In this document: piece after piece, positions 8,368 to 32,192 of the stretch
Layout: every line of letters starts with the position of its first letter
How positions within the stretch are numbered: position 1 is the first letter of the stretch
DNA from: Singulisphaera sp. GP187
Lineage (GTDB): Bacteria > Planctomycetota > Phycisphaerae > Phycisphaerales > SM1A02
Length of the DNA: 35,488 nucleotides
Assembly: GCA_945871445.1 (NCBI GenBank)
Contig: CAMBWI010000022.1
Location: 1-35,488 of the forward strand
Direction of reading: 5' to 3'
Translations under genes and position numbers: made by a program
The notes under the pieces: model-generated
Seen by the model: only the letters and a program-made list of their open reading frames with translations
Told to the model about the DNA's origin: nothing
Database searches by the model: none

Positions 8368-8391
8368 GCAGAATCGGACAGCACATTGAGA

Positions 8392-8519: not shown

Positions 8520-8541
8520 ACACGGTGAGTGATGTGCGACG

Positions 8542-13347: not shown

Positions 13348-14128
13348 GGCTTTCAAATTCTCCGGCGACGCGGCCGTCTTTCAAAATGAATGTTCGCTGA
13401 CAATGAGAGGCGGCGATCGCCTCATGAGTCACCATCAATACGATCATTTTCCGCTGTGCTGCAGTCTCTTCTAGCAATCGCCAGAGTGCGGCACTGCTGG
13501 TCGAGTCCAGATTTCCTGTTGGCTCATCAGCAAGAATGACAGGGGGTGCGAAAAACAATGCGCGAGCGATCGCAACACGCTGTTGTTCGCCGCCAGAGAG
13601 AGCTTCTGGCCTGTGATGGAGCCTGTCGCTCAATCCAAGTTCGCCAAGTATTTCTCGACCTCGCGCTTCAAGTTCCTTCGTCGGTCGTCCATCAAGAACT
13701 CCAGGCAGAATTGTGTTTGCAAGCGCATCGAGCGTTGGCAATAAATTGTATTGCTGAAAAATCACGCCGATCTCTCGTCGGCGATACTTCACAAGTTCAC
13801 TTTCTTTCATTGAATGAACAGCAGAACCACCAACAATAATTTCGCCCGTATCTGGGCGATCCAATCCTGCCAACAAATGCAGCAGAGTGCTCTTGCCACT
13901 TCCAGAACGCCCCATCACTGCATAAAAGCCAGGTTCTTGAATTTCTAGTTCAACTCCTCGGAGCGCTTCGACGACACGACCGCTGGATTTCAATTCAGAT
14001 TTCGATGACGATTTCCCTGCCGTTTTACTCGCAGAAACAGAACCTTCAACTGAGTAGGTCTTTCGCACTCCACGAATAGAAATCGCCGCGTCAGCCAACG
14101 GGGTGCTTTGCGTCATAGGTGGATGCAT
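13289..14128 (-). CDS. ABC transporter ATP-binding protein, LolD/MacB family
   Basis: Cytoplasmic ATPase (279 aa) energising the overlapping FtsX-type permease. Walker A GRSGSGKS is at about 73-80, followed by the Q-loop [12 protein letters not shown], signature [16 protein letters not shown], Walker [14 protein letters not shown] and H-loop VTHE. LolD/MacB traits such as the FQQ..LLP motif and TGNLDS are clear. Odd: between the first strand (VRKTYSVEG) and the next conserved segment ([10 protein letters not shown]) there is a Ser/Lys-rich insertion of about 20 residues. The start at 14128 lies 38 nt inside gcvH; a second ATG at 14116 is possible. The order gcvH-ATPase-permease suggests one transcript, although no functional link to glycine cleavage is known. 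Confidence 0.92.
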
Positions 14129-18112: not shown

Positions 18113-19405
18113 ATGAACTTTCAGCCTATTCTTTTGACAATTCTTGCTGGCTCGATCGCTCTTTTGGACATGAGTGCTTTGGCTCAGTCGAAGCCGGCAA
18201 CCCCGCCAGCAAAGACTCCAGCGAAGGCTGTCTCCGCGAAAGAGACTGCGAAGAAGCCCGCAACAAAAGATGCTGCTTTAGTTGTTGCTCCAGTCATCGA
18301 AACAGAAAAATCAAAGAGCGTCTATATCGTTCCGATGGGAATAGAAGACAAAGGCCAATTTGGTCTTGATATTCATCCGCAGGTTTACGAACAAATTGCC
18401 AAGGACATTACAGAAAAGCGTCCCGACATTGTTGTCTTTATACTGAACTCAGCTGACCTTAGTAGTGTCAGATACCTAGGAGATGATCCAAGAAAGTTTG
18501 GTCTTTTTGATGACGACGGGATTCGTAAGATGACACGGGATCTCAAGGAAGTCATTGAAAAAGTTGGGGCAGAATCGATCATGATTGTTCGAGATGCTGT
18601 TGGATACAGCGTACTTCTTGGATTATCTTGGCCAAACATGTACATGACGGATTCTGCTCGGTTGATGGGACTCGAACGAATTCAGGAACGAACAAAGGTT
18701 GAGGATCCTGAGGTTTACGCAAAGTTTCGAGAAGCAATGATCGGAATTTGCAACGGGTTCCTGATTTCTGGGGGGTATGACCCAAACATCGGAATGGCCA
18801 TGATGCGGGAAGATAAGATGTTGAGCGCAACTTTTAAGGGGCGCGAGATCGTTTGGTCTGACGATGCAAAGGGGACTTGGGTTGTCGATGGCAGCAAAGA
18901 AAAAATTACAGCCCATTTTAATTCTGAAATGGCAGAAGATCTTGGGCTCTCAGATGGGACTGTCTCCGATGATGGCGCAACGATGATCGAAGATCTTATG
19001 TACTTGCGAGGCACTCGAAACTACGAACGCTTGCCCCAAGACGGCGAAATCCTTGTTCGCCAATACATCGATGGATGGAGAAAAGGTCTCGAAGATTGCG
19101 TAAAATCCTATACCAAGTATCAAGAAGCTCTTGGTGAGGCGCAAGGTAAAGACGAGAAAAAGAATCTCTCGAAAGCCAAGGGAATTTTAGAAAAGGTCCT
19201 TTCAATCGTCAAGAAATATCCAGCAGTTGCAATAAGGCTCAATCAGCAATTTGGAATATCCAGTTTGGAAATCGAGACGGAATTGCTCACATTGCAAGAT
19301 CGAATTCGCGGGTTGGGAAAGTCGACTGCGCCACCATCTGGGGGTGGAGGTAAGGGTGGAGGCGGAGGATTAGGTGTAGGTTCAAATATCACAGATAGTC
19401 AATGA
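18113..19405 (+). CDS. Secreted ClpP-fold (NfeD/SppA-like) protein, catalytic serine apparently lost
   Basis: A 430-residue exported protein. It has a signal peptide (MNFQPILLTILAGSIALLDMSALAQ), a Pro/Ala/Lys-rich linker to about residue 66, a ClpP/crotonase-like domain (about 68-290), a helical C-terminal part and a glycine-rich tail (SGGGGKGGGGGLG). It resembles the next gene in order of strands and in phrases such as NMYM, FNSEMAEDLGLSDGT and its partner's SAEHSGFSDGT. Where the partner has the nucleophile ISGGAF, this protein reads DAVGYS, with Gly164 at the serine position; Lys204 may match the general base. It may therefore be a non-catalytic subunit. The start is supported by the signal peptide and the promoter 6 nt upstream. 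The next gene begins 19 nt downstream. Confidence 0.78.
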   Translation: MNFQPILLTILAGSIALLDMSALAQSKPATPPAKTPAKAVSAKETAKKPATKDAALVVAPVIETEKSKSVYIVPMGIEDKGQFGLDIHPQVYEQIAKDITEKRPDIVVFILNSADLSSVRYLGDDPRKFGLFDDDGIRKMTRDLKEVIEKVGAESIMIVRDAVGYSVLLGLSWPNMYMTDSARLMGLERIQERTKVEDPEVYAKFREAMIGICNGFLISGGYDPNIGMAMMREDKMLSATFKGREIVWSDDAKGTWVVDGSKEKITAHFNSEMAEDLGLSDGTVSDDGATMIEDLMYLRGTRNYERLPQDGEILVRQYIDGWRKGLEDCVKSYTKYQEALGEAQGKDEKKNLSKAKGILEKVLSIVKKYPAVAIRLNQQFGISSLEIETELLTLQDRIRGLGKSTAPPSGGGGKGGGGGLGVGSNITDSQ

Positions 19406-19424: not shown

Positions 19425-20564
19425 ATGAAACATTTTACTTTTCGCTCTGTCAAAATCATTTGCATCTCGTGCATTCTTGTATCTGCACAATCACAAGCCT
19501 TCGCACAGTCTGTTACGCCGAAAACTTCTCCTGCGAAAGACACAGCAAAGCCTGAAGGCAAGACTTCTGCAACTGCCTCTACAACTGCTTCTACAACTGC
19601 TTCTACAATTGTCAATCCTGTTGAGAAAAAGAAAAGGCAAGTTTTCGTTCTCCCCCTTGACGGCATGGTTGGAATCGGTTTGCGTCACGATGAGATGGAG
19701 CAAGTCGAAAAAATTGCAGACTCGTTTGGACCCGGTCAAGTAATCATCCTTCGAATAAACTCAAATGGTGGACTTGTAATCGAAGGAGATTGGATTGGCG
19801 CAAGTCTGACGCGGATCAAGGCGAAGCATCGATTGGTTGCATGGATTGAAAAAGCGATTTCTGGCGGTGCGTTTACTGGACTTTTCTGCGATGAAATGTA
19901 TTTCATGCCCGAGGCAGCATTGGGTTCCATCACGATGCTCAGCGGAGCAACCCGCCAAGAAATTAGTGAGGTTCGTGAAGATTGGAAAGCACGCGTTGCA
20001 GAGGCGTGTGCTGCAGGAGACCGAGATCCATTAATCGGACCTGCGATGGTCCACTCAGAGATGGAATTGTCGTACGAAAAAGTTGGAGATAAAGTGACTT
20101 TTTATCCAGACGCAAAGCACACTTATGTTTTAAGCCGAAAGGGCGAGAATCTCGATTTCAGCGCACAATCCGCAGAGCATTCAGGCTTTTCAGATGGAAC
20201 GGCTGCAACGGAGAAGGACTTGTTCTTAGAACTTGGCGTGGATGACCCAACAAAGTTCGAAGTCAATCCTGCAGGCAAACAAATCGCTGAGAAGTGGCAA
20301 AAAACAATTAGTAGTTGCAAGCAAGAGGTTCCACTCTTGCTTCAAAAGCGTGATATTGAAGGGCGTAGCCAAGGAGGTGTTCCTTTCCTACAGGCACGAA
20401 TCAGAAACACGCAAAAAATCGTTGATTGGTTTAAGAAGTGCCCTCCAGAAATGAAGTACGACTTACAAATCGGCGAAGAAGCAATCGAACAACTCAAGGA
20501 TGAGATCGTTCAGATGCGCAAGCAGATCAAGGAAATGCAGGCTGCTGGGCAGCCTGGAGCTTGA
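19425..20564 (+). CDS. Secreted ClpP-fold serine protease, NfeD/SppA-like
   Basis: Predicted exported or membrane-adjacent protease, 379 aa. A signal peptide (MKHFTFRSVKIICISCILVS..AFAQ) is followed by a threonine/serine linker containing TAST repeats. The ClpP-like domain covers about 70-270. Ser146 in IEKAISGGAFTGL aligns with the nucleophile of NfeD proteases, and Lys188 in VREDWKARVAEA lies 42 residues on, close to the Ser97-Lys138 spacing of Pyrococcus 1510-N. RINSNGGLVIEG fits the oxyanion-side strand. The C-terminus is a charged helix (IEQLKDEIVQMRKQIKEMQ). It has no NfeD membrane or OB domain. It is probably co-transcribed with the preceding paralogue and ends 13 nt from the convergent permease gene. 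Confidence 0.82.
   Translation: MKHFTFRSVKIICISCILVSAQSQAFAQSVTPKTSPAKDTAKPEGKTSATASTTASTTASTIVNPVEKKKRQVFVLPLDGMVGIGLRHDEMEQVEKIADSFGPGQVIILRINSNGGLVIEGDWIGASLTRIKAKHRLVAWIEKAISGGAFTGLFCDEMYFMPEAALGSITMLSGATRQEISEVREDWKARVAEACAAGDRDPLIGPAMVHSEMELSYEKVGDKVTFYPDAKHTYVLSRKGENLDFSAQSAEHSGFSDGTAATEKDLFLELGVDDPTKFEVNPAGKQIAEKWQKTISSCKQEVPLLLQKRDIEGRSQGGVPFLQARIRNTQKIVDWFKKCPPEMKYDLQIGEEAIEQLKDEIVQMRKQIKEMQAAGQPGA
19571..19606 (+). repeat. 12-bp tandem repeat inside the NfeD-like protease gene
   Basis: Three copies of AACTGCTTCTAC (the first with one C/T difference) encode the linker repeat TAST. The 12-bp period keeps the frame, so copy number could vary without disrupting the protein. Confidence 0.85.
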
Positions 20565-20577
20565 CAACTCGATTGTT

Positions 20578-21615
20578 CTATCCAACTTCCCTACGTTGAA
20601 ACATCGCGGCAGCCAAAGCAAGAGCTGCGATGGTCATAACAACTGCGTATGGAACGACAAGAGAAATATAATTCATTGGAATTGACTGTCCCTGATTCAC
20701 AGCATCAACCACCCAGAAAACTTGGAAATTTGGCAGGACTGCATATCCGATCTTGCACCCCCAGAGTGCAAGATGATCCATATTCAATGATCCGCCTTCT
20801 GCAGCTTCACGCACGGAAATCAATTGCTCAAGAGTCAAGATTTTTCGAGCAAAGATCCAATCCGATAGTAATCCAAGCACCAAAATCGAAAGAGTGATTC
20901 CCATCGTCAAGACTTGCCCCAATCGAGTACTGACTGCAACTGCAATCGCAGAAAGAATGCTGAGCGAAAGAAACATAAGCAGAATCGCGACGATCAATTC
21001 AAAGCGGAACTCGCTCGAAACGCTGATCGAGGACCAATCGAAATCAAAGAACATACTGAGAACGTACGCAATCAACAGAAGCGGTCCGCCGAGCAATGCA
21101 GTAATTGAAGCGAATGATTTCCCATAGAAAAAATTGCACCATGCCGCAGTGCCGATCGTCAACAGAACGGCAATTGCCCCGAAAACAATGCATGGCCATC
21201 GAAATGAAGTTTTTGCGGTTTGCATTACTCCGTGCACTTCGACGAGTAGGAATGTCGCGGCGGGAACGATGGTCGTTGCGAGCAATGCGAGTGTTACACC
21301 AAGGTATTTTCCTAGGATAAAGGTCGTTCGAGGGACTGGTTTGGAGATCACGAGAAGGACTGTTTTGTTGGATATTTCTTGGTCGACAACCCTTGTCGCA
21401 AGAAAGGAGGCGAGGATCGCCCCAGACATAAAAACCGTTGACAGACCTATGTCTATGTACATCCGTTGATCATCAGACATGGTGAATGCAGAAAGCGGAT
21501 TCGAAATTACAACTAGAATTACGGATGCGATCAGAATGACCAAACTAATCGGCTGTCGAACACACTCGAAGAAAGTGTTCCGAATAAATGCGAAAAGTTG
21601 TTCGATGAATACCAT
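20578..21615 (-). CDS. ABC-2-type transporter permease
   Basis: Inner-membrane protein of about 345 aa with six or more hydrophobic segments: SLVILIASVILVVIS, VFMSGAILASFLATRVV, YLGVTLALLATTIVPAATFLL, WPCIVFGAIAVLLTIGTA, LIVAILLMFLSLSILSAIAVAV, and a last one, YAVVMTIAALALAAAMF. DQEISNKTVLLVISKPVPRT followed by FILGKYLG is the coupling-helix signature of ABC-2 permeases such as NatB/YhaP types. An ATG at 21615 is preferred to TTG 21627; neither has a good ribosome site. There is no ATPase gene next to it on its strand; the closest is at 26309 in the divergent operon, whose own permease has a similar ILTKPVSRFQYLFGKL segment. Confidence 0.85.
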   Translation of the reverse strand: MVFIEQLFAFIRNTFFECVRQPISLVILIASVILVVISNPLSAFTMSDDQRMYIDIGLSTVFMSGAILASFLATRVVDQEISNKTVLLVISKPVPRTTFILGKYLGVTLALLATTIVPAATFLLVEVHGVMQTAKTSFRWPCIVFGAIAVLLTIGTAAWCNFFYGKSFASITALLGGPLLLIAYVLSMFFDFDWSSISVSSEFRFELIVAILLMFLSLSILSAIAVAVSTRLGQVLTMGITLSILVLGLLSDWIFARKILTLEQLISVREAAEGGSLNMDHLALWGCKIGYAVLPNFQVFWVVDAVNQGQSIPMNYISLVVPYAVVMTIAALALAAAMFQRREVG

Positions 21616-21791
21616 AGAATTATTCAAGCATTGTACGCCGATTCTCGTTCAGTTAGTAGGAACATTATGAGTATCTATGCGCAGTCAAATTGGAAGCAGT
21701 CTAACTGACTTTCTGGCTGATATCCGATTTCGAAAATTGCTACGACGAAACCTGAACCAAGACATCAAATCTACCGTATCCTATTTACGAT

Positions 21792-23897
21792 ATGACTCGA
21801 GATCAATTCATATACCAACAAGCAGCTCGCGTTTCTAGTTTTGGACTTGCGATCCAGTTTTTTCTTGGAATCTTTCTTCTTGTTTTTGCACGAGTCGTTG
21901 GCGATTCCACGCTGATAATCGCCTCGCTCTATGTGCTTTCGGGAGTCGTGATTTGGGTCTCTTTAATAGTGCTCTTTCATCAGCACCGTCTTGAACGAAT
22001 TGAAGCGATCGAAAATGATGAGATAACCCAACAAAGAACGACTGCAATTGGCGCATTTGATGGTGAGCGAGAACTCAGTCAAGCATCAGCTCGGCGCTTG
22101 GCATTTATGTATCAGTGGTTGATGCCGATCATAAGTTTGGTCATGGTGATCCTTCTTGCAATGATCGGGTATTTCACCTTGGTCTGGTTGGCAAGGCTTG
22201 ACGACACTACTGGAAATTCTGTGATTTTTGGAGTTGGATTGAATCTCGGGTGGCAACTTGCGATTTGTGCAGCGCTTTCACTTGTCACTTTCATTTTCTC
22301 CAGATTCGTCGCTGGAATGTCTCAACAACCTGCATGGCAGAATTTGCGTGGTGGAGCAGGAGCTATGGTTGGCAATGCTCTTGTGCTTCTCGCCGTCGCA
22401 GCTGGAATCGTCTTTCAGGTCTTCAGAAAACCTGCGGTTCTTGAAGGAGTGGCGTACGGAATTGGGCTATTTTCTGCTGTGATTGCAGGAGAAATCCTTC
22501 TCAATCTGATTTTAAATATCTATCGACCTCGACGACGGACAGAAGTATCTCGTCCAGCCTTTGATTCGAAACTGCTTGGGTTAGCAGCTGCACCTGATTC
22601 CATCGTTCGCAGCATAAACGAAGCGGTCAATTATCAATTTGGATTCGATATCACTAGTTCTTGGGGTTATAAGTTACTCCTAAGAAGTACTCTTCGCCTT
22701 TCATTGCTCGGATTTGCGATATTAATTCTGATGTCGATGGTCGTCGTTGTTCAGCCAGGAGAACAGGCGGTTCGATTGCGGGGCGGGCGCGTGATAGGTG
22801 AAGTCACACAGGGTTCTATGGTGTTCAAATGGCCGTGGCCTTTCGAATCAATTGAACGATTGGATGTTGGTCAGATTCGAACTCTTGTGTTGGGACCAAA
22901 GCTTCATCCCACCTCGAAAATAAATCTTTGGCCAATCGAAGGCGAGCCTGATTCATCTCGTCTCAATTTCATTGTCTTAGCGAATTCTGAGTCAATTGTT
23001 CCAGCGTTAATGCCGCCGCCAGAAAGTACCGAAGCGGCGACTGTTTCTGCCCAATTCGCTCTTGTTGATGCCGATCTCGTCCTTGAGTACAGAGTCAAAG
23101 CGGATGGATTGCTCGACTATCTCAATTTCTCCGGTGATACACGGTCGCGTCGGACTGCTCTGGATATGCGAGAACTTGCGCTCAGAGCTATTGCAATGAG
23201 AGAAGTGCGGCAATTACTTTCTACAAAAACGATTGATCAAGTGCTTTCTCCGACGGGTGATTCCCTCGTCCTTCAGTTAAAAGCTCGGATTCAGGAATCA
23301 TTCGACCGAAGCCGAAGTGGTGTGGAAGTTGTCGGGATTCTTGTTCCAGTTCTGCGACCTCCTTCGAGCCAGTCCGCAGGTATGTTCGAAGAACTTTCGA
23401 TTGACATTCAAAATGCTCGAAAAGTAGTCGATGAAGCGAACCGAATGGTGAACACAACAATGTCCACCTTGGTTGGTAGCCCAGATGCTGGAACACGAGT
23501 TGTGAGTGATATTCGCGAACTCCAGTTGATCGAGCAGAAAAATGGGAAAGACTCGCCAGACGCGCGAGTAAAACGAGCAAGTATTGAAAAGTTAATTGTT
23601 GATGCTCGGGCTCAAGCTGCAAGTGTTATTGGTGCTGCCCATGCCAAACGCTGGGATATGTTGATGAGAGCACGCTCAACGACGAGTGAAGTCCTCGGTC
23701 AGGCTCCTTCGTATCGTGCCGCCCCAGAGATTTATCGCGAGCGTGCGATTATGTCTGTCCTCTCTCGCGCCCTCGCTTCCGTGCGAATCAAATATGTTTT
23801 AGCAGTCGATCCGTCACGAATTGACTTTGACGTTCAAATGGAACAACCAGAACCTGGGTTGAACCTAGGTGATTACATTGAAAAGAAGGAACAATAA
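21792..23897 (+). CDS. Polytopic membrane SPFH (Band 7) protein, HflK-like
   Basis: First gene of the eight-gene run; 701 aa. About six transmembrane segments fill residues 14-242 (for example 14-34, 40-62, 108-132, 142-170, 190-211, 217-242). A cytoplasmic stretch and one more segment (301-322, GFAILILMSMVVVV) follow. The SPFH domain starts directly after this (VQPGEQAVRLRGGRVIGEV, WPWPFESIERLDV) and a helical region ends the protein. HflK normally has one membrane segment, so the N-terminal half is an addition. SPFH proteins form oligomeric rings or cages in membranes and can control proteases such as FtsH; no ftsH is in the window. No Shine-Dalgarno site or clear promoter was found. The stop overlaps the next start by 1 nt. 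Confidence 0.85.
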   Translation: MTRDQFIYQQAARVSSFGLAIQFFLGIFLLVFARVVGDSTLIIASLYVLSGVVIWVSLIVLFHQHRLERIEAIENDEITQQRTTAIGAFDGERELSQASARRLAFMYQWLMPIISLVMVILLAMIGYFTLVWLARLDDTTGNSVIFGVGLNLGWQLAICAALSLVTFIFSRFVAGMSQQPAWQNLRGGAGAMVGNALVLLAVAAGIVFQVFRKPAVLEGVAYGIGLFSAVIAGEILLNLILNIYRPRRRTEVSRPAFDSKLLGLAAAPDSIVRSINEAVNYQFGFDITSSWGYKLLLRSTLRLSLLGFAILILMSMVVVVQPGEQAVRLRGGRVIGEVTQGSMVFKWPWPFESIERLDVGQIRTLVLGPKLHPTSKINLWPIEGEPDSSRLNFIVLANSESIVPALMPPPESTEAATVSAQFALVDADLVLEYRVKADGLLDYLNFSGDTRSRRTALDMRELALRAIAMREVRQLLSTKTIDQVLSPTGDSLVLQLKARIQESFDRSRSGVEVVGILVPVLRPPSSQSAGMFEELSIDIQNARKVVDEANRMVNTTMSTLVGSPDAGTRVVSDIRELQLIEQKNGKDSPDARVKRASIEKLIVDARAQAASVIGAAHAKRWDMLMRARSTTSEVLGQAPSYRAAPEIYRERAIMSVLSRALASVRIKYVLAVDPSRIDFDVQMEQPEPGLNLGDYIEKKEQ

Positions 23898-24853
23898 TGA
23901 TTCGTAAAATCCCCATCATAATTGCTTCAGTTATCGTCCTCGTACTCGTCTTGTTTAATACCACTTATACCGTGAATTTTCACGAGATTGCGGTTCTAAC
24001 GCGTTTTGGAAAACCTGCTGGCGTGCAGCGTGACCCTGGTCTTCATTTGAAGGCTCCGTTGTTCATTGATCAAGTGACCAAGCTCGATGCTCGATTGCAG
24101 TTCATTGAGAGTCCGTTAGAGACAGTGCTCACAAAGGATGGTCAGCAGGTGTTGGTTCAGGCATACTTGCTTTGGCGAGTTGAAGATTCGGGAGATGCGC
24201 CACTTCAATTCTTCATTTCCTATGGAAACCTTGAGGCCGCAGGTAAGGAACTCGAAACACAGTTGCAGGGGGCGGTTCGCTCGGTTGGCGGATATAATTT
24301 TAGTGATCTGATAGGGCAAGGCAGCAAAATTGCTGAAGCCGAGAGTGCTATTTTGAATGACCTTCGATCTACGAAGCTTGCAGGGATCGACCCTGTCAGT
24401 GTGGGTATTTCTCAGATTGTGCTTCCACCGAAGACTACTGTTGCTGTCTTGCGACGAATGGCTGCGGTTCAAGAAACCTTGGCAAATCTGGAAGAAGCGA
24501 AGGGTAACTCTGAGGCAGAGGCGATTAAGAGTTTGGCGGCAAGTTCCGCGGACACGATCCGTAATTTTGCTGCGCAGTGGGCATCAGAAATTGAGTCGCT
24601 TGGAAATGAAGAAGCCACGCGTTACTACCAACTGATGAAGCAAGAAGCTGATCTTGCAATTTTCCTAACTTGGCTCGATACGCTGAAGGCTTCTCTCTCT
24701 GGAAGCACGACATTTGTGACTGACTTGAATCGAGCTCCATTCCACTTGCTTGATCTTTCAGCTCCAAGTGGTTCGACTGGTATCCCGCAACCTAAGAAAC
24801 CATATGTGGTTGAAGCCCCTCAAGATGGGGCCACTGGTAAGGGAGCGCCTTGA
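23897..24853 (+). CDS. SPFH (Band 7) protein, HflC-like
   Basis: 318 aa with one N-terminal membrane segment (IPIIIASVIVLVLVLFNTTY) and an SPFH domain: VNFHEIAVLTRFGKP, DPGLHLKAPLFIDQVTKLDAR (in parts: GLHLKAPLFIDQV), LTKDGQQVLVQAYLLWRV and GISQIVLPPKTTVAVLRRM. A glutamate/alanine-rich helix region (EAKGNSEAEAIKSLAAS) follows. Length and order match HflC, which pairs with HflK to form a membrane cage around FtsH. The start overlaps the previous stop (TAATGA) and the stop overlaps the next start (TGATG), implying coordinated stoichiometry of the three SPFH proteins. Confidence 0.88.
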   Translation: MIRKIPIIIASVIVLVLVLFNTTYTVNFHEIAVLTRFGKPAGVQRDPGLHLKAPLFIDQVTKLDARLQFIESPLETVLTKDGQQVLVQAYLLWRVEDSGDAPLQFFISYGNLEAAGKELETQLQGAVRSVGGYNFSDLIGQGSKIAEAESAILNDLRSTKLAGIDPVSVGISQIVLPPKTTVAVLRRMAAVQETLANLEEAKGNSEAEAIKSLAASSADTIRNFAAQWASEIESLGNEEATRYYQLMKQEADLAIFLTWLDTLKASLSGSTTFVTDLNRAPFHLLDLSAPSGSTGIPQPKKPYVVEAPQDGATGKGAP

Positions 24854-26295
24854 TGACGAGTAAGAATCCAAATCCGCCTTCCAAGTTGCCAAACGATGAG
24901 AAGGAGGATTCGTCGCATACAGTTCGAATTGGCAAGAGCGCTACGCTTGATGTGGGTTCGACTGGAAATGATCGAGCCCTCATGCGTGAGGCGATGGATC
25001 CTGCAAATGAGAGTCTTGGAGAAGCTCTTCGGCTTTCATATCGATTACTTCAATTCGCAATCGCCGGACTTATCTTGACTTTTTTCTTTTCTGGTTTCCA
25101 ATCGATTCCGGAAGGAGTGACAGGAATTCGAACGATTTTTGGAAAAGTAGCGGGGGATCCTGGTGATGAAGTTATCTCGCCTGGGCTTCAGCCATTTTGG
25201 CCATACCCAATTGGTGAATTCAACACTATGCAACAGCGCCAAAACATTGAGATTCGAAATATGTTTTGGCCTTTTCGCGCACAAAAAGATATCACGCTTG
25301 AAGCTGCAACAGAAGCATCCGCTACGAGCGAACCGTTGCGCCCAGGACGAGATGGTTCAGTGATTACTGCTGATGGAGATTTGGCGCATTTGCAACTGTC
25401 AGTTGATTATTCAATTGTTGACCCAGTGTCAATGCTGACTCAGCTTGCTTCAGAGAAGACAGATGCTCTTGTGAGATCAGTACTCGGTCGAGCGGTCGTT
25501 CAGACTGTGGCTGTCTATACCCTTGCGGAACTTCTTGAACAGCGTGAAACTCCTGCGCTCGATATTCGGCAGCGAATGCAAAAGTTCCTAGATGAATTGC
25601 AAGTCGGAATTCAGATTGGATCTGTCGTCATTCTCGAGCGAACAGCACCACTTTCAGTTCGTGGATCACTTCAACGTGTTCAAACCGCTCGCGAGGACAT
25701 GAAGACGAATTTAGAGCGCGCACGACAAGATGCGAGTGCAAAACTTGTCGGCGCTGCTGGTCCAAATTATCTTGTGATTTTAGATATGATTCATGAATAT
25801 GAGTTACTTCTGACTGCAGGGGATGTAGCAGGTTCAGACAAAATGCTTCGAAGTATTGGTCAACGCTTTGAGCAGCCAGATATTGGTGGCCATGCATCTC
25901 GCATCATTATGCAAGCAAAAGCCTCACAGGACAATATTTCTGCAATACTCTCAAAAGACGCTCGTCGGCTGATGAGCCTTGAACAAAGTTACAAGGAAAA
26001 TCCCAAGCAACTGATTCAGCAATTGTGGCTTGATGCAGTTCGACAAGCGATGGATCAAAATGAAGTCGAAGTTTTTTCCGTTCCAAACGAGTTGGAGCGT
26101 TACGTTATTCGAGTCAAGAGTTCTCCAACGGTCATGCAAACAAGGCGTGATGCCGAGCTTGCCCGCAAGAAGATGGCGGCTGCAATGATCAAAGGGGATC
26201 TTCCATCGTTTGAATTGGGAAGTAGGCAAATTATGATCGATGCCCCTGGTCGACGTCTTGATAAATCTGGCGACAAAGGATTTGGGCGAGATTAA
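24853..26295 (+). CDS. SPFH (Band 7) protein, HflK-like, single-span
   Basis: 480 aa. The N-terminal 60 residues are polar (PNPPSKLPNDEKEDSSH) and cytoplasmic, as in HflK. One membrane segment at about 63-82 (RLLQFAIAGLILTFFFSGF) is followed by the SPFH domain (SIPEGVTGIRTIFGKV, SPGLQPFWPYPIGEF, VITADGDLAHLQLSVDY). A long helical part contains REDMKTNLERARQDASAKL and other Ala/Gln/Arg heptads. The end, beyond VIRVKSSPTVMQTRRDAELARKK (in parts), is basic. The ATG at 24853 is chosen over TTG 24850 because it overlaps the previous stop. With two neighbours this gives three non-identical SPFH proteins in one operon. Confidence 0.87.
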   Translation: MTSKNPNPPSKLPNDEKEDSSHTVRIGKSATLDVGSTGNDRALMREAMDPANESLGEALRLSYRLLQFAIAGLILTFFFSGFQSIPEGVTGIRTIFGKVAGDPGDEVISPGLQPFWPYPIGEFNTMQQRQNIEIRNMFWPFRAQKDITLEAATEASATSEPLRPGRDGSVITADGDLAHLQLSVDYSIVDPVSMLTQLASEKTDALVRSVLGRAVVQTVAVYTLAELLEQRETPALDIRQRMQKFLDELQVGIQIGSVVILERTAPLSVRGSLQRVQTAREDMKTNLERARQDASAKLVGAAGPNYLVILDMIHEYELLLTAGDVAGSDKMLRSIGQRFEQPDIGGHASRIIMQAKASQDNISAILSKDARRLMSLEQSYKENPKQLIQQLWLDAVRQAMDQNEVEVFSVPNELERYVIRVKSSPTVMQTRRDAELARKKMAAAMIKGDLPSFELGSRQIMIDAPGRRLDKSGDKGFGRD

Positions 26296-26308
26296 ATCGG
26301 AGTGAGAT

Positions 26309-27517
26309 ATGACCACAGTAAAACAATCAGAGTCAACTCGACCTGTGGTTGAATCCCAAGGCCTAGTAAAGGTTTTTGGAGATTTTTGGATGCGATCGAA
26401 GGCTCGTGCAGTTGATGGCATTGACTTCGAAATTCGACCAAATGAAATTTTCGGTTTGCTCGGTCCAAATGGATCAGGTAAGAGCACGACAATAAAATTA
26501 ATCCTTGGTCTTTTGCGAAAGAGCAAAGGTCGTTTGACGGTCTTTGGTAGGGATCCTGCGGATGTATCTATCAAAAGAAGAATCGGTTACTTGCCCGAAG
26601 AATCTTATATGTATCGATTTCTCAACCCGAAGGAGACATTGGATTATTTCGGAAAACTCTTTGGAATTTCACGCCAAATTCGTCAAAAGCGTACGGATGA
26701 GTTACTTGAAATGGTTGGGTTGGAAGGTGCTACCAATCGAGCGGTTGGAGAGTTTTCCAAGGGTATGGCTCGACGGCTTGGAATTGCTCAGGCACTCATC
26801 AATGATCCAGAATTCCTGATACTTGACGAACCAACTTCAGGACTTGATCCAATCGGAACGCGGCAAGTGAAAGATCTTTTACTAGAGCTTCGCCGCCGTG
26901 GGAAAACTATTCTTCTGTCCTCTCATCTCTTGGCTGATGTCGAGGATGTTTGTGATCGAATGGTCATTCTTTATGGTGGGAAGATTCGGGCATCTGGTAC
27001 CGCGGAGCAGTTGCTCTGTGATACGCATCGAACAACAATTAATGTGCCTCGCCTTCGTCCTGAGACAATCGTGAAGATTGATGAACTCCTTCATAGAGAA
27101 GAAGGCATTGCGATCGGAAGCGTAGATTCGCCACGCCAAAAACTTGAAGAGCTCTTCATTCAAATCGTTGAAAGTGCAAGGGCAGAACAAACTTCAACGA
27201 GTGGTGCAAAGCATGGAGGCAAAACGGCTGCATTTCTCCTAGGCAAGGAAGATGATGAATCAGGTTCTGCATTCATCGATGAATTGCAAGCCCCAATCTC
27301 AGCAACACCGATTGCGCCAGTTCAGAAGGCAGCATCGATTCCTACCAAAGCAAATGAAAGCGATGCAATTTTCAAAGAACTGTTATCTCCCAAATCCACT
27401 CCTGAAGTCACTTCTGCGCCCAAAGTGATTCCACCTGATACAGGCAATGTTGGCAAGTCGGTTGACACATCAGTCATTGATGATCTCATCGACGGTCGTT
27501 CGGAGAAGAAGGCGTGA
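26309..27517 (+). CDS. ABC transporter ATP-binding protein with long C-terminal tail
   Basis: 402 aa ATPase. Walker A GPNGSGKST at about 52-60, signature FSKGMARRLGIAQAL near 149, Walker B LILDEPTSGLD at about 170-180, H-loop LSSH near 206; the SKGM form of the signature is typical of ABC-2 exporters. The nucleotide-binding domain ends near residue 240. A small accessory segment (ETIVKIDELLHREEGIAIG) and about 110 residues of Pro/Ser/Thr- and acid-rich, probably disordered sequence follow, ending DDLIDGRSEKKA. GGAG lies 9 nt before the ATG, 13 nt after the third SPFH gene. The stop overlaps the permease GTG (GTGA). It likely powers that permease and possibly the divergent one at 20578. Confidence 0.92.
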   Translation: MTTVKQSESTRPVVESQGLVKVFGDFWMRSKARAVDGIDFEIRPNEIFGLLGPNGSGKSTTIKLILGLLRKSKGRLTVFGRDPADVSIKRRIGYLPEESYMYRFLNPKETLDYFGKLFGISRQIRQKRTDELLEMVGLEGATNRAVGEFSKGMARRLGIAQALINDPEFLILDEPTSGLDPIGTRQVKDLLLELRRRGKTILLSSHLLADVEDVCDRMVILYGGKIRASGTAEQLLCDTHRTTINVPRLRPETIVKIDELLHREEGIAIGSVDSPRQKLEELFIQIVESARAEQTSTSGAKHGGKTAAFLLGKEDDESGSAFIDELQAPISATPIAPVQKAASIPTKANESDAIFKELLSPKSTPEVTSAPKVIPPDTGNVGKSVDTSVIDDLIDGRSEKKA

Positions 27518-29550
27518 TTCAAATTCGGCAATGGCACGAGCGCTTGCAAGTTTGGCAATCTGCCCCCAAAAATCGGGTGATATTGACGGTTCTTTTTGTT
27601 TTGTGCAGTCTTGCTTCATTTGGTCCACTTTGTTGGTCTTCGTACAAGTACGCAGAACTCTGTTCGAAAATTTCGGCGGTACTTTCTGAAGCAAATATTG
27701 AAGAGCGCAATCAAGTTGCAATGCAATTGATGGAGCGTGGCACCGTGACTGTTGAGGGAGTTGAAATTGGAGGCCCTCGTGTTCAAGTTGTCGCAGATCA
27801 AATGTTTGCTCGTGGTGGTTTGATTTTTGATCTTGATTTTACATCGTCGTTCATCGCATCTTCGGTATCGCCTGGTTGGGCTCCTGCAAACATTATCGAA
27901 CGTCCATTTTTGGTTGCGGGTATCGCCTTTGTCGCAATGTCCCTTGCCGTGCTGGCAGTATGGTTAGGAAATGCGATCGCCTTAGTCACCTTGATTCTTT
28001 TGACTGGTGGTCTCATGGGAATTTTTTGGTCCACATCACAACTCGACCTTGTGCTTGCTACTGCAGGGACCGGATTCTTGATCTTTATATTTCTTCTGCT
28101 GTCGCGCATCGCCCAATCGCTTCTTGCATCTCCAAATCAAATTTGTGCCATCGCAAGCGGACTTCTACTGGAAGCAATGCGCCAGCGAATCTCGATTGGT
28201 TTTATCGGTGCTCTTCTCGTTGTCCTTCCATTGATTCCAATCTCTATTGATAATCGTGATCCCCTTCGCTATCAAATACAGACATTCATATCCCGAGGAT
28301 CAGGGCTTGTTTTCTTAGTTGCCGCCTGCCTCACACTTTTTCTTTCGTGTTCTACGGTCGCATTCGAGATTCGAGATCGTCAGATCTGGAATATTTTGAC
28401 GAAGCCAGTTTCCCGCTTCCAATATTTGTTTGGAAAACTCGTTGGAATTTCGGTCCTCAATGGAATCATCTTGATCGTTGGGGGCTTCGCTATTTTTGTA
28501 TATGTCCAATTGATAAATACTCGTGCGCCAGTTGACAATCAGGATGCTGCTGCGGTGCGAAACCAAGTTCTCGTTGCAAGAGAAGTCGCACTTCCTAAGT
28601 ACGAGTTCATTGATCAGGTAAAACTTCGTGAAATTGTGGATGGAACGATTCAGAACGATTCAATTTTGCGTTCTGAAATTGCGGATGGGATCAAGTCCGA
28701 AGTCGAAGTTATCCGCCAGATACGCATTCAAAAAACGGCGGAGTTTATGTCGGCTCAGAGACTAATTGATGGAGGTGCGAGCCGAGTTTTCCATTTTTCT
28801 GGACTCGAAGAGGCTCGGCGAGCTTCTGCGCAGCCGGTATTGCGCTACTGCTTTCACACTGGCCGTGATAGTTCGCATGAACTTTATCCGGTGCTGTTGC
28901 AATTCGGAGGTTTGCCTCCCGTCCAAGTGAACTATGTTCCTGTGCTGAGTAATGTGGTGCCAATTCCAGTCAAAGCTATCAATGAAGATGGCACACTCGA
29001 CGTGACGATTATCAATGGTGGAATCACACGTGATGGTCAATTTTATCCAACAGAAGGTTCGTTCAATTTTGATGCCGATGGGCTCGAGGTCCTCCATCGC
29101 GTGGGGGGATTTGAGGCAAATTTATTCCGCGCAATTCTGATTGATTGGGCAAAACTGATTTTTATCGCTGCTCTGGGTGTGAGTTCCGCAAGCATCATGT
29201 CCTTTCCTGTTGCGGTGTTGATTTCTTGCACAATTTTTGTCGTTGGTTCAATGTCAACATATCTTGCTATCTCACTCGAAAATTATTACATAACGAATGA
29301 TGCAAACTTCTTTGTGCAATCAATGCAATACACGATCCGGTTCATCGTCGAAGTCGTTTGGTGGATTCTTTCTCCTTATTCATCTTCAGGAAGTTCTACG
29401 GAACTTGTTCAAGGACGTTTGATTTCGTGGCGTTCTGTATTCGGGTCCGTCGCACAGGTTGGAGTTTGTTGGAGCATGTTGGTTTTCACTCTTGCATTGC
29501 TTGCCTTTAGGAAAAAGGAAATTGCAATTTATAGTGGCGGAGATGCCTGA
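27514..29550 (+). CDS. ABC transporter permease with large extracytoplasmic loop
   Basis: 678 aa, starting at GTG 27514 inside the ATPase stop. TM1 lies at about 21-40, then a 90-residue exported segment, then six or so hydrophobic segments between about 130 and 335. EIRDRQIWNILTKPVSRFQY marks the cytoplasmic coupling region, as in ABC-2 permeases. Residues about 336-545 form a polar extracytoplasmic domain (with FHFSGLEEARRASAQPVLRY and PVLLQFGGLPPVQVNYVPVL in parts). Three or four membrane segments close the protein. The topology, with the big loop before the last segments, suggests it works on something in the periplasm or envelope. The substrate is unknown. The stop is 3 nt before the next start. 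Confidence 0.85.
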   Translation: MIQIRQWHERLQVWQSAPKNRVILTVLFVLCSLASFGPLCWSSYKYAELCSKISAVLSEANIEERNQVAMQLMERGTVTVEGVEIGGPRVQVVADQMFARGGLIFDLDFTSSFIASSVSPGWAPANIIERPFLVAGIAFVAMSLAVLAVWLGNAIALVTLILLTGGLMGIFWSTSQLDLVLATAGTGFLIFIFLLLSRIAQSLLASPNQICAIASGLLLEAMRQRISIGFIGALLVVLPLIPISIDNRDPLRYQIQTFISRGSGLVFLVAACLTLFLSCSTVAFEIRDRQIWNILTKPVSRFQYLFGKLVGISVLNGIILIVGGFAIFVYVQLINTRAPVDNQDAAAVRNQVLVAREVALPKYEFIDQVKLREIVDGTIQNDSILRSEIADGIKSEVEVIRQIRIQKTAEFMSAQRLIDGGASRVFHFSGLEEARRASAQPVLRYCFHTGRDSSHELYPVLLQFGGLPPVQVNYVPVLSNVVPIPVKAINEDGTLDVTIINGGITRDGQFYPTEGSFNFDADGLEVLHRVGGFEANLFRAILIDWAKLIFIAALGVSSASIMSFPVAVLISCTIFVVGSMSTYLAISLENYYITNDANFFVQSMQYTIRFIVEVVWWILSPYSSSGSSTELVQGRLISWRSVFGSVAQVGVCWSMLVFTLALLAFRKKEIAIYSGGDA

Positions 29551-29553
29551 GTT

Positions 29554-31509
29554 ATGCGTGATCGTCTGATCCAACTTCTTTGCCTGTTTATCGCCGTCAT
29601 TGCCATCACTGGGGGTGGGATGTTGTTGCCCAATATCTTGAGAGTCAGTGACGAAAAAAGTTTGCGCTATACCGATGTGTCGATCGATGGTGCGCCCCCA
29701 ATCGTCGCACTCGGAACGGCTATTGGCGCTTTGAGAGGCCTTATCGTTGATTATCTCTGGATCAAAACGAATATGAATAAGCAAAAAGGCCTTCATTATG
29801 AAGCGATGGCCGATGCTTCACTTATCACAAAGCTTCAGCCTCGTTTTGGAGATGTTTGGGCATTTCAAGGCCACAATATGGCTTACAACATTTCAGTTTT
29901 GACGGACACTCCGCGCGAACGATGGGATTGGGTATGCGCCGGAATTGATCTTGTCCGTGATGAAGGACTTCGTTACAACCCAAATGATTTAATCTTGCAT
30001 AAAGAACTCGCATTTTATTTCGCTCACAAGATTGATGGCGTTTCGGACGATGCCCACTTGTATTACAAACGGGAGTTTGCCCGCGACTGGCAATTTCTCT
30101 TAGGGATTCCACCTGGCTCTCAAGCAGATCGAATCGCATGGATTGGCGCGATTAAAGATGCCCCCGAATCGCTTGAAGAATTGATTATTCAGAATCCAAA
30201 TGTGCAGAAACTTGTTGATCAACTCAAGGAAAGTCTCGAAGGATTTGACGCGAAATTTCATTTCCAGCTCGATGGAAAATTCTTAAGAAACCTTGGTCGA
30301 TGGAAATCGGTTCAGATGAGTCGTTATGCAAAGTTACTTGGTCTTGAGGCAACATTTCGAAAGAACGACCTTGTCTATTTGGCGTTGGATACTGTGTTGA
30401 AGAGTGATGAGCTGAAAGAGACTCTCGAGCCGTTCCTGCTGTTCTTGCGCAAAAAAGTCCTACGAGAAGAGTTCAACATGGACGCGAATCTCATGTGGGA
30501 AATAACGCGTGACTTCGGTCCATTTGACTGGAGACATCCGCAATCGCATGCATTTTATTGGGCTCGTAAAGGCGCAACAACAGCCGAAAAACGATTTGCA
30601 AACGTTGAAGAGATTTACAAGATTTTGAATAACGATCGGACGAATATTCAAGCAATGCAGGCACTGTCGCGGACTGGCCTCATGAGCTTCGATCCATTCA
30701 GTAGTGATAATCCAAGTCGCCTGAGCGATCCGCGCTGGATCAAAGCGATCGATAAATACTTTGGCGTCCTCTACCGAAAACACTATGGAACAAGAGGCGG
30801 GGGAGGAGACTCATTTTGCGATTTTTACAAAAATTTTATGGCTCAAGCCGTTCGAGAGTTGTATCGGTTTGGTGACTATGAAGGTGCCCAGTCGATTCTG
30901 TCAAATCTCGACCGTTTGTTCGGTCGTGGAGGTCTCATCCCGAACAACGAATATGAAGCACCACTCGAAATTTTTGTCCTGAACACAACATATGGTCAAT
31001 ACGAGGACGCTCCAGATGTTGCTCGAAGCGATGTTTACGCAGCTTTACAGCATGGTTTTCGCGAAGGATTACTTATGGATCGTCGAAAGATTCTTGAAGA
31101 TGCTGTGAAGTTCGCAGGAGATCTCACGAGTTATTTTCAGGGGAGCCAATATTCCGACTTTGTGAACAAGTTTGGTGAGCGAAGAATGGCTGATCTCATC
31201 GGTGATCTTAGATCTAGTATTCGAGATGTTTTCGCAAATGTATTGGTTGATGCTTCTCAACCACTTGTTGATCGACTGACGATTTACAATCGCGCAAGTG
31301 AATCTGAACGGCGTATTGTGTATGACCTCGTCAAAGAGCAACTCCAAGCAGAGTTTGAACTCGACCCACTTTCGAATGTTGCAAACTTTGCAATGCTCCT
31401 CCCAGAACCTCCCGATATGGGAGCGTATCGTGAAGCTGTTGCCGCCGAAGCCGCAAAGCGTGAAGCTGAAGTCGAAAATTCGAAACGATCAACTTCCGAA
31501 ATGAAATGA
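29554..31509 (+). CDS. Membrane-anchored protein of unknown function, tetratricopeptide-like
   Basis: 651 aa. One N-terminal membrane segment (RLIQLLCLFIAVIAITGGGMLL) is followed by a second hydrophobic stretch (PPIVALGTAIGALRGLIVDYLW). Then comes a conserved-looking block, YEAMADASLITKLQPRFGDVW and FQGHNMAYNISV, reminiscent of tetratricopeptide helices. I associate this block with large uncharacterised planctomycete proteins encoded beside ABC-2 exporters; that is recollection, not a search result. The rest is helical with no catalytic motif; the tail is rich in Ala, Glu and Lys. It lies 3 nt after the permease and overlaps the FAH-family gene (ATGA), so it may be a fixed partner of the transporter. 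Confidence 0.75.
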   Translation: MRDRLIQLLCLFIAVIAITGGGMLLPNILRVSDEKSLRYTDVSIDGAPPIVALGTAIGALRGLIVDYLWIKTNMNKQKGLHYEAMADASLITKLQPRFGDVWAFQGHNMAYNISVLTDTPRERWDWVCAGIDLVRDEGLRYNPNDLILHKELAFYFAHKIDGVSDDAHLYYKREFARDWQFLLGIPPGSQADRIAWIGAIKDAPESLEELIIQNPNVQKLVDQLKESLEGFDAKFHFQLDGKFLRNLGRWKSVQMSRYAKLLGLEATFRKNDLVYLALDTVLKSDELKETLEPFLLFLRKKVLREEFNMDANLMWEITRDFGPFDWRHPQSHAFYWARKGATTAEKRFANVEEIYKILNNDRTNIQAMQALSRTGLMSFDPFSSDNPSRLSDPRWIKAIDKYFGVLYRKHYGTRGGGGDSFCDFYKNFMAQAVRELYRFGDYEGAQSILSNLDRLFGRGGLIPNNEYEAPLEIFVLNTTYGQYEDAPDVARSDVYAALQHGFREGLLMDRRKILEDAVKFAGDLTSYFQGSQYSDFVNKFGERRMADLIGDLRSSIRDVFANVLVDASQPLVDRLTIYNRASESERRIVYDLVKEQLQAEFELDPLSNVANFAMLLPEPPDMGAYREAVAAEAAKREAEVENSKRSTSEMK

Positions 31510-32192
31510 TGACTTCGCAAATTGAGCCTTCTGCTTTCTTCCCGCCAGCAATCTTGGCCATCGGTCGAAACTACGCGGATCATGCCAAGGAAATGGGTGG
31601 AACCGTTCCGACGCAACCGATTATTTTCTTCAAGAATCCTGGTTGTGTGATTGCAGATGGCGCGTCGATCATCATTCCTGCAATCTGCCGCGAAGGTGGT
31701 CCACAAGTTGATTTCGAAGGAGAATTAGCGGTGATTCTTGGCGCGAATTGCCGTGAAGTTTCCCAATCGGACGCACTGGGAATGGTTGAGGGATACGCAG
31801 TTGCAAATGATGTCAGCGCAAGGTGGTGGCAAAATCAAGGAGCGGGCGGGCAATTCAGTCGAGGCAAAAGTTTTGACACATTTTGTCCACTCAGCAAAAT
31901 CATTTCCGCAAAAAAAATAAAGGACCCACAAAATCTTCGAATTCAAACTCGAGTTTCTGGAGAACTCATGCAGGATTCATCAACTTCCAACATGATCTTC
32001 TCTGTTGCCAAGTTGATCAGTGATCTTTCACGCGGCATGACGCTCTTGAAAGGAACAGTCATTCTTACGGGCTCTCCTCCCGGCGTCGGGCACGCGCGAA
32101 AACCTCCCCGATATTTGCAACATGGTGATGTCGTTGAAATTTCCATTGAATCTGTCGGCATGTTGTCAAATCCTGTGATCGAAGAGCCGTGA
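31506..32192 (+). CDS. Fumarylacetoacetate hydrolase (FAH) family protein
   Basis: 228 aa soluble enzyme of the FAH fold, whose members act on 2-oxo acids (acylpyruvate hydrolases, oxaloacetate decarboxylases and isomerases). Family blocks: [34 protein letters not shown] (two metal-binding glutamates), [10 protein letters not shown] (metal-binding aspartate), [10 protein letters not shown] and [20 protein letters not shown] followed by [12 protein letters not shown]. Length suits a YcgM/FAHD1-like single-domain hydrolase; the precise substrate cannot be told. It overlaps the preceding stop (ATGA) and the next start (GTGA). Its presence in a membrane-protein operon looks coincidental, but the couplings on both sides are tight. 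Confidence 0.9.

What the first reader, a model, noticed from the sequence alone, without database searches (positions are those of the whole stretch)
21792..31509. Operon of three distinct SPFH proteins joined to an ABC exporter and an unknown membrane protein
Six genes with overlaps or gaps of 13 nt or less encode a polytopic SPFH protein, HflC-like and HflK-like SPFH proteins, an ABC ATPase with a long tail, a permease with a large exported loop and a 651-residue membrane protein. HflK/HflC cages are known with two subunits and FtsH. Three subunits, one with about seven membrane segments, plus a transporter suggest a different assembly, possibly an SPFH enclosure around an exporter.
Basis: partly seen in the sequence, partly recalled or inferred. 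Interest (0 to 1): 0.72.

Follow-up and report, generated by a model that had tools for sequence, protein, structure and literature searches.

The report
SPFH trio joined to membrane pumps
In a lineage of planctomycete bacteria, three cage-type membrane proteins are encoded in one conserved operon with an ABC pump, and in many relatives also with a metal-type P-type pump, which suggests an undescribed assembly in which a protein cage is built around membrane pumps rather than around a protease.

Summary
The six-gene operon is real and conserved: S1 (7-TM SPFH), S2 (HflC-type), S3 (HflK-type), ABC ATPase, ABC-2 permease, and U (TM-anchored alpha-solenoid). A divergent second ABC-2 permease (PERM2) belongs to it. 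Full order is present in 41 of 47 order loci and 59 of 80 named loci; nearly all misses are contig-limited, one (G057) is a true separation.

Phylum-wide it is two modules. ATP-permease-U also occurs without SPFH genes (19 of 20 stretches). S1-S2-S3 is linked to a P1B, metal-type ATPase: within 8 kb of 37 of 55 listed full-type S1 places. In the window's genome this ATPase lies on another contig; in its family it keeps catalytic motifs but has CPG instead of CPC (7 of 7 rows).

S1's six-TM half is predicted to fold like CDF zinc transporters; sequence support is weak. In G097 and G224 the equivalent protein is a genuine CDF-SPFH fusion, probably parallel.

Best reading: an HflK/C-like cage around ATP-driven pumps. 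Linkage is shown; cage, docking and substrate are inferred. No account found in the literature searched.

The parts
20578..21627 (-). PERM2, ABC-2 type permease, 349 aa, divergent from S1
   Evidence: ABC2_membrane_2 E 5.1e-6, under cut-off; present in 38 of 47 order loci and 58 of 80 named loci; co-oriented just upstream of S1 in 11 stretches from other families
21792..23897 (+). S1, polytopic SPFH protein, 701 aa: 6-TM domain with CDF-like predicted fold, then TM7, then an HflK-side SPFH domain and coiled coil
   Evidence: Band_7 E 3e-7; profile hits HflK chains E 6.5e-27; AF2 pLDDT 78, pTM 0.50; Foldseek HflK/C E 1.6e-10, ZnT3 prob 1.00 at E 0.04; main S1 clade 100/100
23897..24853 (+). S2, HflC-type SPFH protein, 318 aa, one TM
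   Evidence: TIGR01932 hflC E 1.9e-29, under equivalog cut-off; groups with HflC in the tree
24850..26295 (+). S3, HflK-type SPFH protein, 481 aa, one TM
   Evidence: TIGR01933 hflK E 4.8e-21, under cut-off; main S3 clade 99/95 on the HflK side
26309..27517 (+). ATP, ABC ATPase, 402 aa with about 150-residue C-terminal tail
   Evidence: ABC_tran E 1.8e-30 over residues 36-177; DrrA/GldA-type matches end near residue 250
27514..29550 (+). PERM, ABC-2 type permease, 678 aa with soluble stretch between about residues 327 and 559
   Evidence: ABC2_membrane_4 E 9.2e-6, under cut-off; 8 hydrophobic segments; no solved relative by profile at E 1
29554..31509 (+). U, TM-anchored alpha-solenoid, 651 aa, probable ABC partner
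   Evidence: No Pfam/NCBIfam family; AF2 pLDDT 85 nearly all-helical; weak TPR-type fold matches, best E 2.4e-3; profile match in 198 of 294 phylum genomes, often only its N-terminal part
31506..32192 (+). FAA-hydrolase family gene overlapping U by 4 nt; probably a local passenger
   Evidence: FAA_hydrolase E 1.2e-66; next to U mainly in the own family

Best explanation
The operon encodes a three-subunit HflK/C-type SPFH assembly dedicated to ATP-driven membrane pumps instead of (or besides) FtsH. S2 (HflC side) and S1 plus S3 (HflK side) would form the periplasmic ring or cage. The extra six-TM domain of S1, predicted to fold like a cation-diffusion-facilitator, would put a membrane floor inside the ring and dock pumps. 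The pumps are a P1B-type ATPase, encoded in the same cluster in many other lineages and elsewhere in this genome, and an ABC-2 exporter made of PERM and PERM2 driven by ATP, with U as its periplasmic alpha-solenoid partner. The ancestral or parallel form was probably a divalent-metal transport assembly. In the window's own family both the CDF-like and the P1B metal sites are degenerate while the ATPase motifs are intact, so the present substrate may not be a soft metal. SHOWN: gene order and conservation, two modules, SPFH relationships, P1B linkage and motif loss. INFERRED: physical assembly, periplasmic side (by analogy with HflK/C and from arginine-rich predicted cytoplasmic loops read by eye), docking role of the six-TM domain, heterodimer of PERM and PERM2, substrate.
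For: Order loci: full S1-S2-S3-ATP-PERM-U order in 41 of 47; named loci 59 of 80. Phylum sample: 55 listed full-type S1 places in 53 of 294 genomes; P1B within 8 kb at 37 of 55, U within 12 kb at 38 of 55, both at 28 (from listed rows). Of 44 genomes with a listed P1B of 800 bits or more, 40 have a full-type S1. In a further set of 20 stretches, 16 have S1, S2, S3 and P1B together and none has a PERM or U gene. In families f4-f6 the strong P1B lies within 4 kb of S1 in 11 of 17 genomes, and in five genera of the own family it lies 22-25 kb upstream on the same contig. SPFH-linked P1Bs plus the relocated copies fall in one clade (SH-aLRT 100, quick tree; 62 of 77 rows: 44 linked, 13 relocated, 5 that I had picked as paralogs). 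Nine of nine linked P1Bs scanned are above the heavy-metal P-type ATPase cut-off. The S1 model matches HflK/C and, among the 50 rows shown, the only other families at probability 0.9 or more are SPFH/vault types and CDF transporters. In G097 and G224 the S1-position protein has a true CDF domain (E 5.2e-26 and 1.3e-20; PF01545 E 3.9e-34 in G097) with HxxxD motifs. S2 branches with HflC, S1 and S3 with HflK. Canonical HflKC coexist with the trio in G041 and G182. FtsH is encoded in 30 of 31 genomes, never inside the operon.
Against: No direct evidence of contact between any two of these proteins. The modules can separate: G163 (one contig: trio, P1B and an ATP gene 850 kb from U), G057 (trio and triad on different large contigs), G109 (S3 not found in 8 kb after S2), G091/G211 (S1 without trio or triad in about 20 kb). 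The P1B is not in the window; in f2 it is 0.3-3.3 Mb away on the same contig in three genomes, and G051 (f4) has it 418 kb away. The CDF link of the window's own S1 is weak by sequence: CDF HMM E 3.4, hhalign probability 3.5% though best of 8 comparisons, Pfam Cation_efflux in 1 of 27 S1 relatives at E 0.055, Foldseek E 0.04-0.6 despite prob near 1. The S1 profile search of solved-chain sequences listed no CDF chain at E 1; its TM part matched NPC1-like 1 at E 0.05. In the SPFH tree the G097/G224 S1 proteins do not fall in the main S1 clade, and G224's P1B is outside the linked P1B clade, so their metal function cannot simply be transferred. pTM of the S1 model is only 0.50. In three f2 genomes ftsH lies 27-29 kb from the operon on the same contig.
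Confidence: 0.5

Rival explanations
1. Genomic neighbours only: the SPFH/P1B module and the ABC/U module are separate envelope machines that share a promoter in some lineages because both are needed together (e.g. under envelope stress), with no physical complex.
For: The modules exist apart: ATP, an ABC-2 permease and U without SPFH in 19 of 20 stretches fetched; separations in G163 and G057. PERM2 plus the triad occurs without SPFH in G304, G313, G172, G265. Sixteen of 20 other stretches hold S1-S2-S3-P1B without PERM or U.
Against: Order and tight spacing are kept in all six families seen of the order, with permease identity down to 24-31%, and U is near at 38 of 55 listed full-type S1 places of the phylum.
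Confidence: 0.3
2. The trio is simply this lineage's HflKC: it regulates FtsH, and the pumps are clients or passengers.
For: In the genus few SPFH matches lie outside the operon, and the three outside ones put in the tree (G007, G016, G005) fall on long branches outside the HflC and HflK clades. FtsH is encoded in 30 of 31 genomes, and 27-29 kb from the operon in G037, G042 and G046. S2 groups with HflC, S1 and S3 with HflK.
Against: The main S1 and S3 clades are apart from canonical HflK, and canonical HflK-HflC pairs coexist with the trio in G041 and G182. All three are under the HflK/HflC equivalog cut-offs. ftsH is never inside the operon in the 31 genomes searched, whereas P1B is beside S1 at 37 of 55 places.
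Confidence: 0.25
3. A working divalent-metal efflux or metal-loading machine, also in the window's organism, with CDF-like S1 and the P1B ATPase as metal carriers and the ABC exporter moving a ligand or client.
For: P1B heavy-metal family with CPC in 29 of 45 linked rows; G224 combines an intact CDF-SPFH, HflC, HflK and an ordinary Zn-type P1B.
Against: In the relocated copies of f1-f4, 0 of 13 P1Bs keep CPC (CPG, CPS or VPA instead) and window S1 lacks the HxxxD pair. No Rfam family, so no metal riboswitch, reaches its gathering score in the window.
Confidence: 0.3

Closest known systems
E. coli HflK-HflC cage with FtsH
   Same: SPFH domain after an N-terminal TM, HflK side and HflC side, S1 model matches HflK/C structures
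   Different: Three subunit types instead of two, one with six additional TM segments; in the operon with ABC (and often P-type) pumps, not with ftsH; scores under the equivalog cut-offs
NfeD-SPFH operons (stomatin/flotillin type, SPFH1/2/5 of the 2009 survey PMC2636767; one section and passages read)
   Same: Conserved SPFH operons; an NfeD1b-like protease gene (19425-20564) lies two genes upstream of S1 here
   Different: Different SPFH subfamilies; the word ABC has 0 occurrences in that paper's main text
P1B heavy-metal ATPases (ZntA/CadA/CopA families)
   Same: Nine of nine linked ATPases pass the TIGR01525 cut-off, and also those of the cadmium (TIGR01512) and, narrowly, copper (TIGR01511) families, so these models do not settle the subtype
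   Different: Nearly all fall in a clade of their own, mostly with a TM8 His motif instead of the ADMGAS type seen in ordinary paralogs, and a variable third residue of CPC
CDF/ZnT cation diffusion facilitators
   Same: Foldseek probability 0.92-1.00 for the S1 model with ZnT1/3/4/7, SLC30A10, YiiP; true CDF domain in G097/G224
   Different: Window S1 has no significant sequence match and no HxxxD pair
ABC-2 exporters (DrrAB/NatAB/NosFY type; names other than DrrA recalled)
   Same: ATPase resembles DrrA/GldA families, under their cut-offs; ABC-2 permeases
   Different: Two dissimilar permeases near one ATPase, large soluble insertion in PERM, dedicated alpha-solenoid partner U

Membership tests
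HflK/HflC (FtsH modulators) | SPFH (Band_7) domain after N-terminal TM | tested here: met
   Band_7 above cut-off in S1, S2, S3; TM segments
HflK/HflC (FtsH modulators) | Score above NCBIfam equivalog cut-off | tested here: not met
   S1 50.9 and S3 75.4 vs 159.4 (TIGR01933); S2 102.5 vs 134.4 (TIGR01932)
HflK/HflC (FtsH modulators) | Phylogenetic place with HflK or HflC | tested here: inconclusive
   S2 on the HflC side; S1 and S3 on the HflK side but mostly as own clades apart from canonical HflK
HflK/HflC (FtsH modulators) | Two-gene hflK-hflC pair | tested here: not met
   Three SPFH genes, conserved
HflK/HflC (FtsH modulators) | Binds FtsH | not testable with these tools
   FtsH encoded outside the operon in 30 of 31 genomes
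CDF transporter (for S1 residues 1-300) | Significant PF01545 or CDF profile match | tested here: not met
   None for window S1 (E 3.4); met in G097 and G224
CDF transporter (for S1 residues 1-300) | Six-TM CDF fold | tested here: inconclusive
   Foldseek prob 1.00 for ZnT3 but E 0.04; aligned range not given by the tool
CDF transporter (for S1 residues 1-300) | HxxxD metal-site motif in TM2/TM5 (motif recalled) | tested here: not met
   Absent in window S1 and in the other relatives shown, present in G097 and G224
ABC-2 type exporter | ABC ATPase plus ABC-2 membrane domain | tested here: inconclusive
   ABC_tran E 1.8e-30 met; ABC2_membrane families E 9.2e-6 and 5.1e-6, both just under curated cut-off
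P1B metal ATPase (partner outside the window) | Family cut-off and phosphorylation motif | tested here: met
   9 of 9 scanned over TIGR01525 cut-off; DKTGT in every row listed
P1B metal ATPase (partner outside the window) | CPC-type metal motif in TM6 | tested here: not met
   In the window's genome and family CPG; f2 CPS or VPA; 29 of 45 linked rows elsewhere have CPC

The most novel reading that the evidence does not exclude
An SPFH pump enclosure: a three-subunit HflK/C-type cage whose own subunit carries a transporter-fold membrane domain and which houses a P-type ATPase and an ABC exporter, so that substrate moved by one pump is held in a walled periplasmic compartment and handed to the next. 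The parallel CDF-SPFH + HflC + HflK sets in G097 and G224 (with a P1B in G224) suggest that bacteria evolved such caged transporters at least twice.
Probability: 0.35. Interest if true: 0.85.

Novelty: new variant of a known kind. Interest (0 to 1): 0.62.

Why it matters
What SPFH cages enclose besides FtsH is largely open. Here genome conservation itself names candidate clients (a P1B ATPase and an ABC-2 exporter), and one cage subunit carries a transporter-like domain in cis. That makes the idea that an SPFH ring walls off a transporter directly testable by co-complex prediction and pull-down in cultured planctomycetes.

Tried and rejected
Co-complex prediction: not available (single proteins only). 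VIA-align: library not on the machine. Solved relatives of PERM and U by profile: none for PERM, none convincing for U. CDF origin of window S1 by hhalign against eight profiles: best of eight but 3.5%, so not claimed as membership. Gene neighbourhood of the relocated P1B in f1: two of the conserved neighbours look like housekeeping genes by eye (EF-G, RibD), no further clue. Metal riboswitch: none in the window; in eight relatives only a tRNA and a c-di-AMP aptamer on the strand opposite to the P1B. Literature: seven searches listed no paper whose title or abstract start describes this operon or an SPFH-P-type ATPase cluster. Of those papers I saw listings only, except one section and passages of PMC2636767, abstract and outline of PMC12005517 and passages of PMC13220708. 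Most subscription-journal papers are not in that library, and no search went outside the phylum for S1 or P1B.

The 47 order loci count G022 twice (its U is split over two contigs). In one search rows under 450 residues were dropped; rows outside 150-480 residues would have been dropped (99 were used).
Full report
Observation. S1, S2 and S3 carry Band_7 above the curated cut-off; ATP is an ABC ATPase; PERM and the divergent PERM2 are ABC-2 permeases by matches just under cut-off; U has no family at E 0.1. Hydropathy gives S1 seven segments. U is modelled with good confidence (pLDDT 85) as a long N-terminal helix plus an alpha-solenoid; its fold matches are weak and TPR-like, best E 2.4e-3.

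Conservation in the own order. U was found in 58 of 61 genomes, the own one included. In 46 fetched stretches plus the window the order S1-S2-S3-ATP-PERM-U is present in 41 of 47. Five of the six misses have under 4.7 kb of sequence upstream of U; the sixth, G057, has 11.4 kb and no trio there, and its trio lies on another contig. In 80 named records the full order is present in 59; 20 of the 21 others hold under 5.7 kb upstream of U, and the remaining one (L112) has all six genes, with overlapping long ORFs disturbing the sort. Permease identity to the window falls to 24-31% in the other families, so the order is not simple recency.

Two modules in the phylum. The U profile matches 198 of 294 genomes drawn from the phylum, but outside the class often only over its N-terminal part. 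Of 20 stretches fetched for such weaker hits, 19 have an ABC ATPase, an ABC-2 permease and U together without SPFH genes in the stretch; four of these also have PERM2. The S1 profile finds a full-type S1 (200 bits or more) at 55 listed places in 53 of the 294 genomes. In many of these a gene of about 650 residues sits between S3 and ATP or just upstream of S1. It is a heavy-metal-type P1B ATPase: 9 of 9 scanned pass the TIGR01525 cut-off. From listed rows, a P1B lies within 8 kb of 37 of 55 full-type S1 places, U within 12 kb of 38, both at 28, neither at 8. Of the eight, G115 and G200 are on contigs under 10 kb, and G041's S1 is split over two contig ends, with the P1B beside its N-terminal piece and ATP after S3. 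G109 has S2 after S1 but no S3 in the following 8 kb, and G091/G211 have S1 alone in about 20 kb. G219 and G266 were not looked at. Forty of 44 genomes with a listed P1B of 800 bits or more have a full-type S1. A further 37 weaker S1-type places have a P1B within 8 kb in 17. Of 20 stretches fetched mainly from these, 16 show S1, S2, S3 and P1B together, and none a PERM or U gene, the stretches being 4-13 kb long. So trio plus P1B is one widespread module and ATP-permease-U another, joined in the Phycisphaerae and several other lineages. Against a tight unit, G163 keeps trio, P1B and an ATP gene 850 kb from U on one contig.

The missing pump of the window. All 61 genomes have some P1B match; 56 of 61 have one of 600 bits or more. 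In families f4-f6 this copy lies within 4 kb of S1 in 11 of 17 genomes (G039, G043, G055, G059, G040, G044, G048, G056, G060, G041, G049). In five other genera of the own family (G024, G031, G033, G034, G035) it lies 22-25 kb upstream on the same contig. In the window's genome it is on contig C46. In f2 it is 0.3-3.3 Mb away in three genomes. In a quick tree of 77 P1Bs the linked copies and the 13 relocated ones (f1-f4) fall in one clade (SH-aLRT 100; 62 rows, 5 of them rows I had picked as paralogs), outside the ordinary types. The exception is G224, whose linked P1B is an ordinary Zn-type (subtype names recalled). The phosphorylation motif DKTGT is intact in every row listed. The TM6 motif is CPC in 29 of 45 linked rows, otherwise CPG 5, CPS 4, CPT 3, CPV 2, CPL 1, TPC 1. 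In the 13 relocated rows it is never CPC: CPG in all 7 rows of f1. Loss of a metal ligand with intact ATPase chemistry points to a changed substrate or role in the own lineage.

S1 and the CDF question. The AF2 model of S1 (pLDDT 78, pTM 0.50) matches HflK/C (E 1.6e-10), erlins, stomatin, prohibitin and, weakly, the vault protein. Among the 50 rows shown of 525, the only other families at probability 0.9 or more are CDF transporters: ZnT3 at 1.00 with E 0.04, ZnT4, ZnT1, ZnT7, SLC30A10 and YiiP. By sequence this is not confirmed for the window: Pfam none, 1 of 27 relatives at E 0.055, hhalign 3.5% but best of eight, CDF HMM E 3.4, and no CDF chain in the profile search of solved sequences, where the TM part matched NPC1-like 1 at E 0.05. 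In G097 and G224 the protein in the S1 position has a clear CDF domain (E 5.2e-26, 1.3e-20) with HxxxD motifs. Yet in the SPFH tree these two fall with their own S3 near canonical HflK, not in the S1 clade, which reads best as a parallel fusion. I therefore say 'CDF-like predicted fold', not 'CDF member'.

SPFH relationships. Among 99 SPFH domains S2 groups with E. coli and planctomycete HflC; S1 (23 of 25 rows, 100/100) and S3 (23 of 25, 99/95) are separate clades on the HflK side, apart from canonical HflK. G041 and G182 carry a canonical HflK-HflC pair as well as the trio. FtsH is encoded in 30 of 31 genomes (two matches in G047, one in each of the others), never inside the operon, though 27-29 kb from it in G037, G042 and G046. 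The trio is best seen as a further kind of HflK/C-type assembly rather than the FtsH pair renamed.

Mechanism. HflK/C forms a cage around FtsH (passage of PMC13220708 seen); that HflK/C face the periplasm is stated in PMC2636767. By analogy, and because S1's predicted cytoplasmic loops are rich in arginine (by eye), the three SPFH domains should lie in the periplasm. The model that best fits the evidence is a ring whose S1 subunits bring six-TM domains into the enclosed membrane patch and hold ATP-driven pumps there: P1B in many lineages, and the ABC-2 exporter with its U partner where the modules are joined. The enclosure, the docking and the substrate are inference.

Literature. Seven full-text searches listed no description. 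The 2009 survey of prokaryotic SPFH operons (PMC2636767, one section and passages seen) discusses NfeD partners, and the word ABC does not occur in its main text.

On re-reading the calls I corrected the following: not all f4-f6 genomes have the P1B beside the operon, ftsH is 27-29 kb away in three f2 genomes, G109 is not contig-limited, and the absence of a CDF chain is now told.

Noticed in passing
window 19425-20564 (+) and 18113-19405 (+): NfeD1b-type ClpP-like protease gene (NfeD1b_N E 1e-17) preceded by a 430-aa protein without family, two genes upstream of S1; the pair is conserved beside the operon in the genus and some of the family. NfeD1b proteins are partners of other SPFH proteins (PMC2636767).
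   Followed up: partly
G097 (L277:3974-5779 -) and G224 (L296:3921-5585 +): Genuine CDF cation-efflux domain fused to an HflK-like SPFH domain, followed by HflC-like and HflK-like genes; in G224 also an ordinary Zn-type P1B ATPase.
   Followed up: partly
G291 C235 (L170): A second S1-S2-S3 trio with a P1B match 0.4 kb from S1, in a genome that also has the complete operon with P1B on C49.
   Followed up: no
L228 (G044) 8361-8522 +: c-di-AMP riboswitch aptamer (Rfam RF00379, 64 bits) just upstream of, but on the strand opposite to, the P1B ATPase gene.
   Followed up: no
G001, G004, G010, G013, G016, G017, G018: In the genus the relocated P1B ATPase lies roughly 32-35 kb from ftsH on the same contig in at least these genomes.
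   Followed up: no
window 10-1599 (+): CHASE2 plus adenylate/guanylate cyclase protein at the window edge.
   Followed up: no
window 10747-14128 (-): A separate FtsX-like permease with an ABC ATPase beside it, apparently unrelated to the operon.
   Followed up: no
U family, phylum-wide: The N-terminal part of U (ITKLQPRF...WAFHAWNMAYNISV motif) is a conserved, unnamed domain next to an ABC ATPase and ABC-2 permease in many Planctomycetota.
   Followed up: partly
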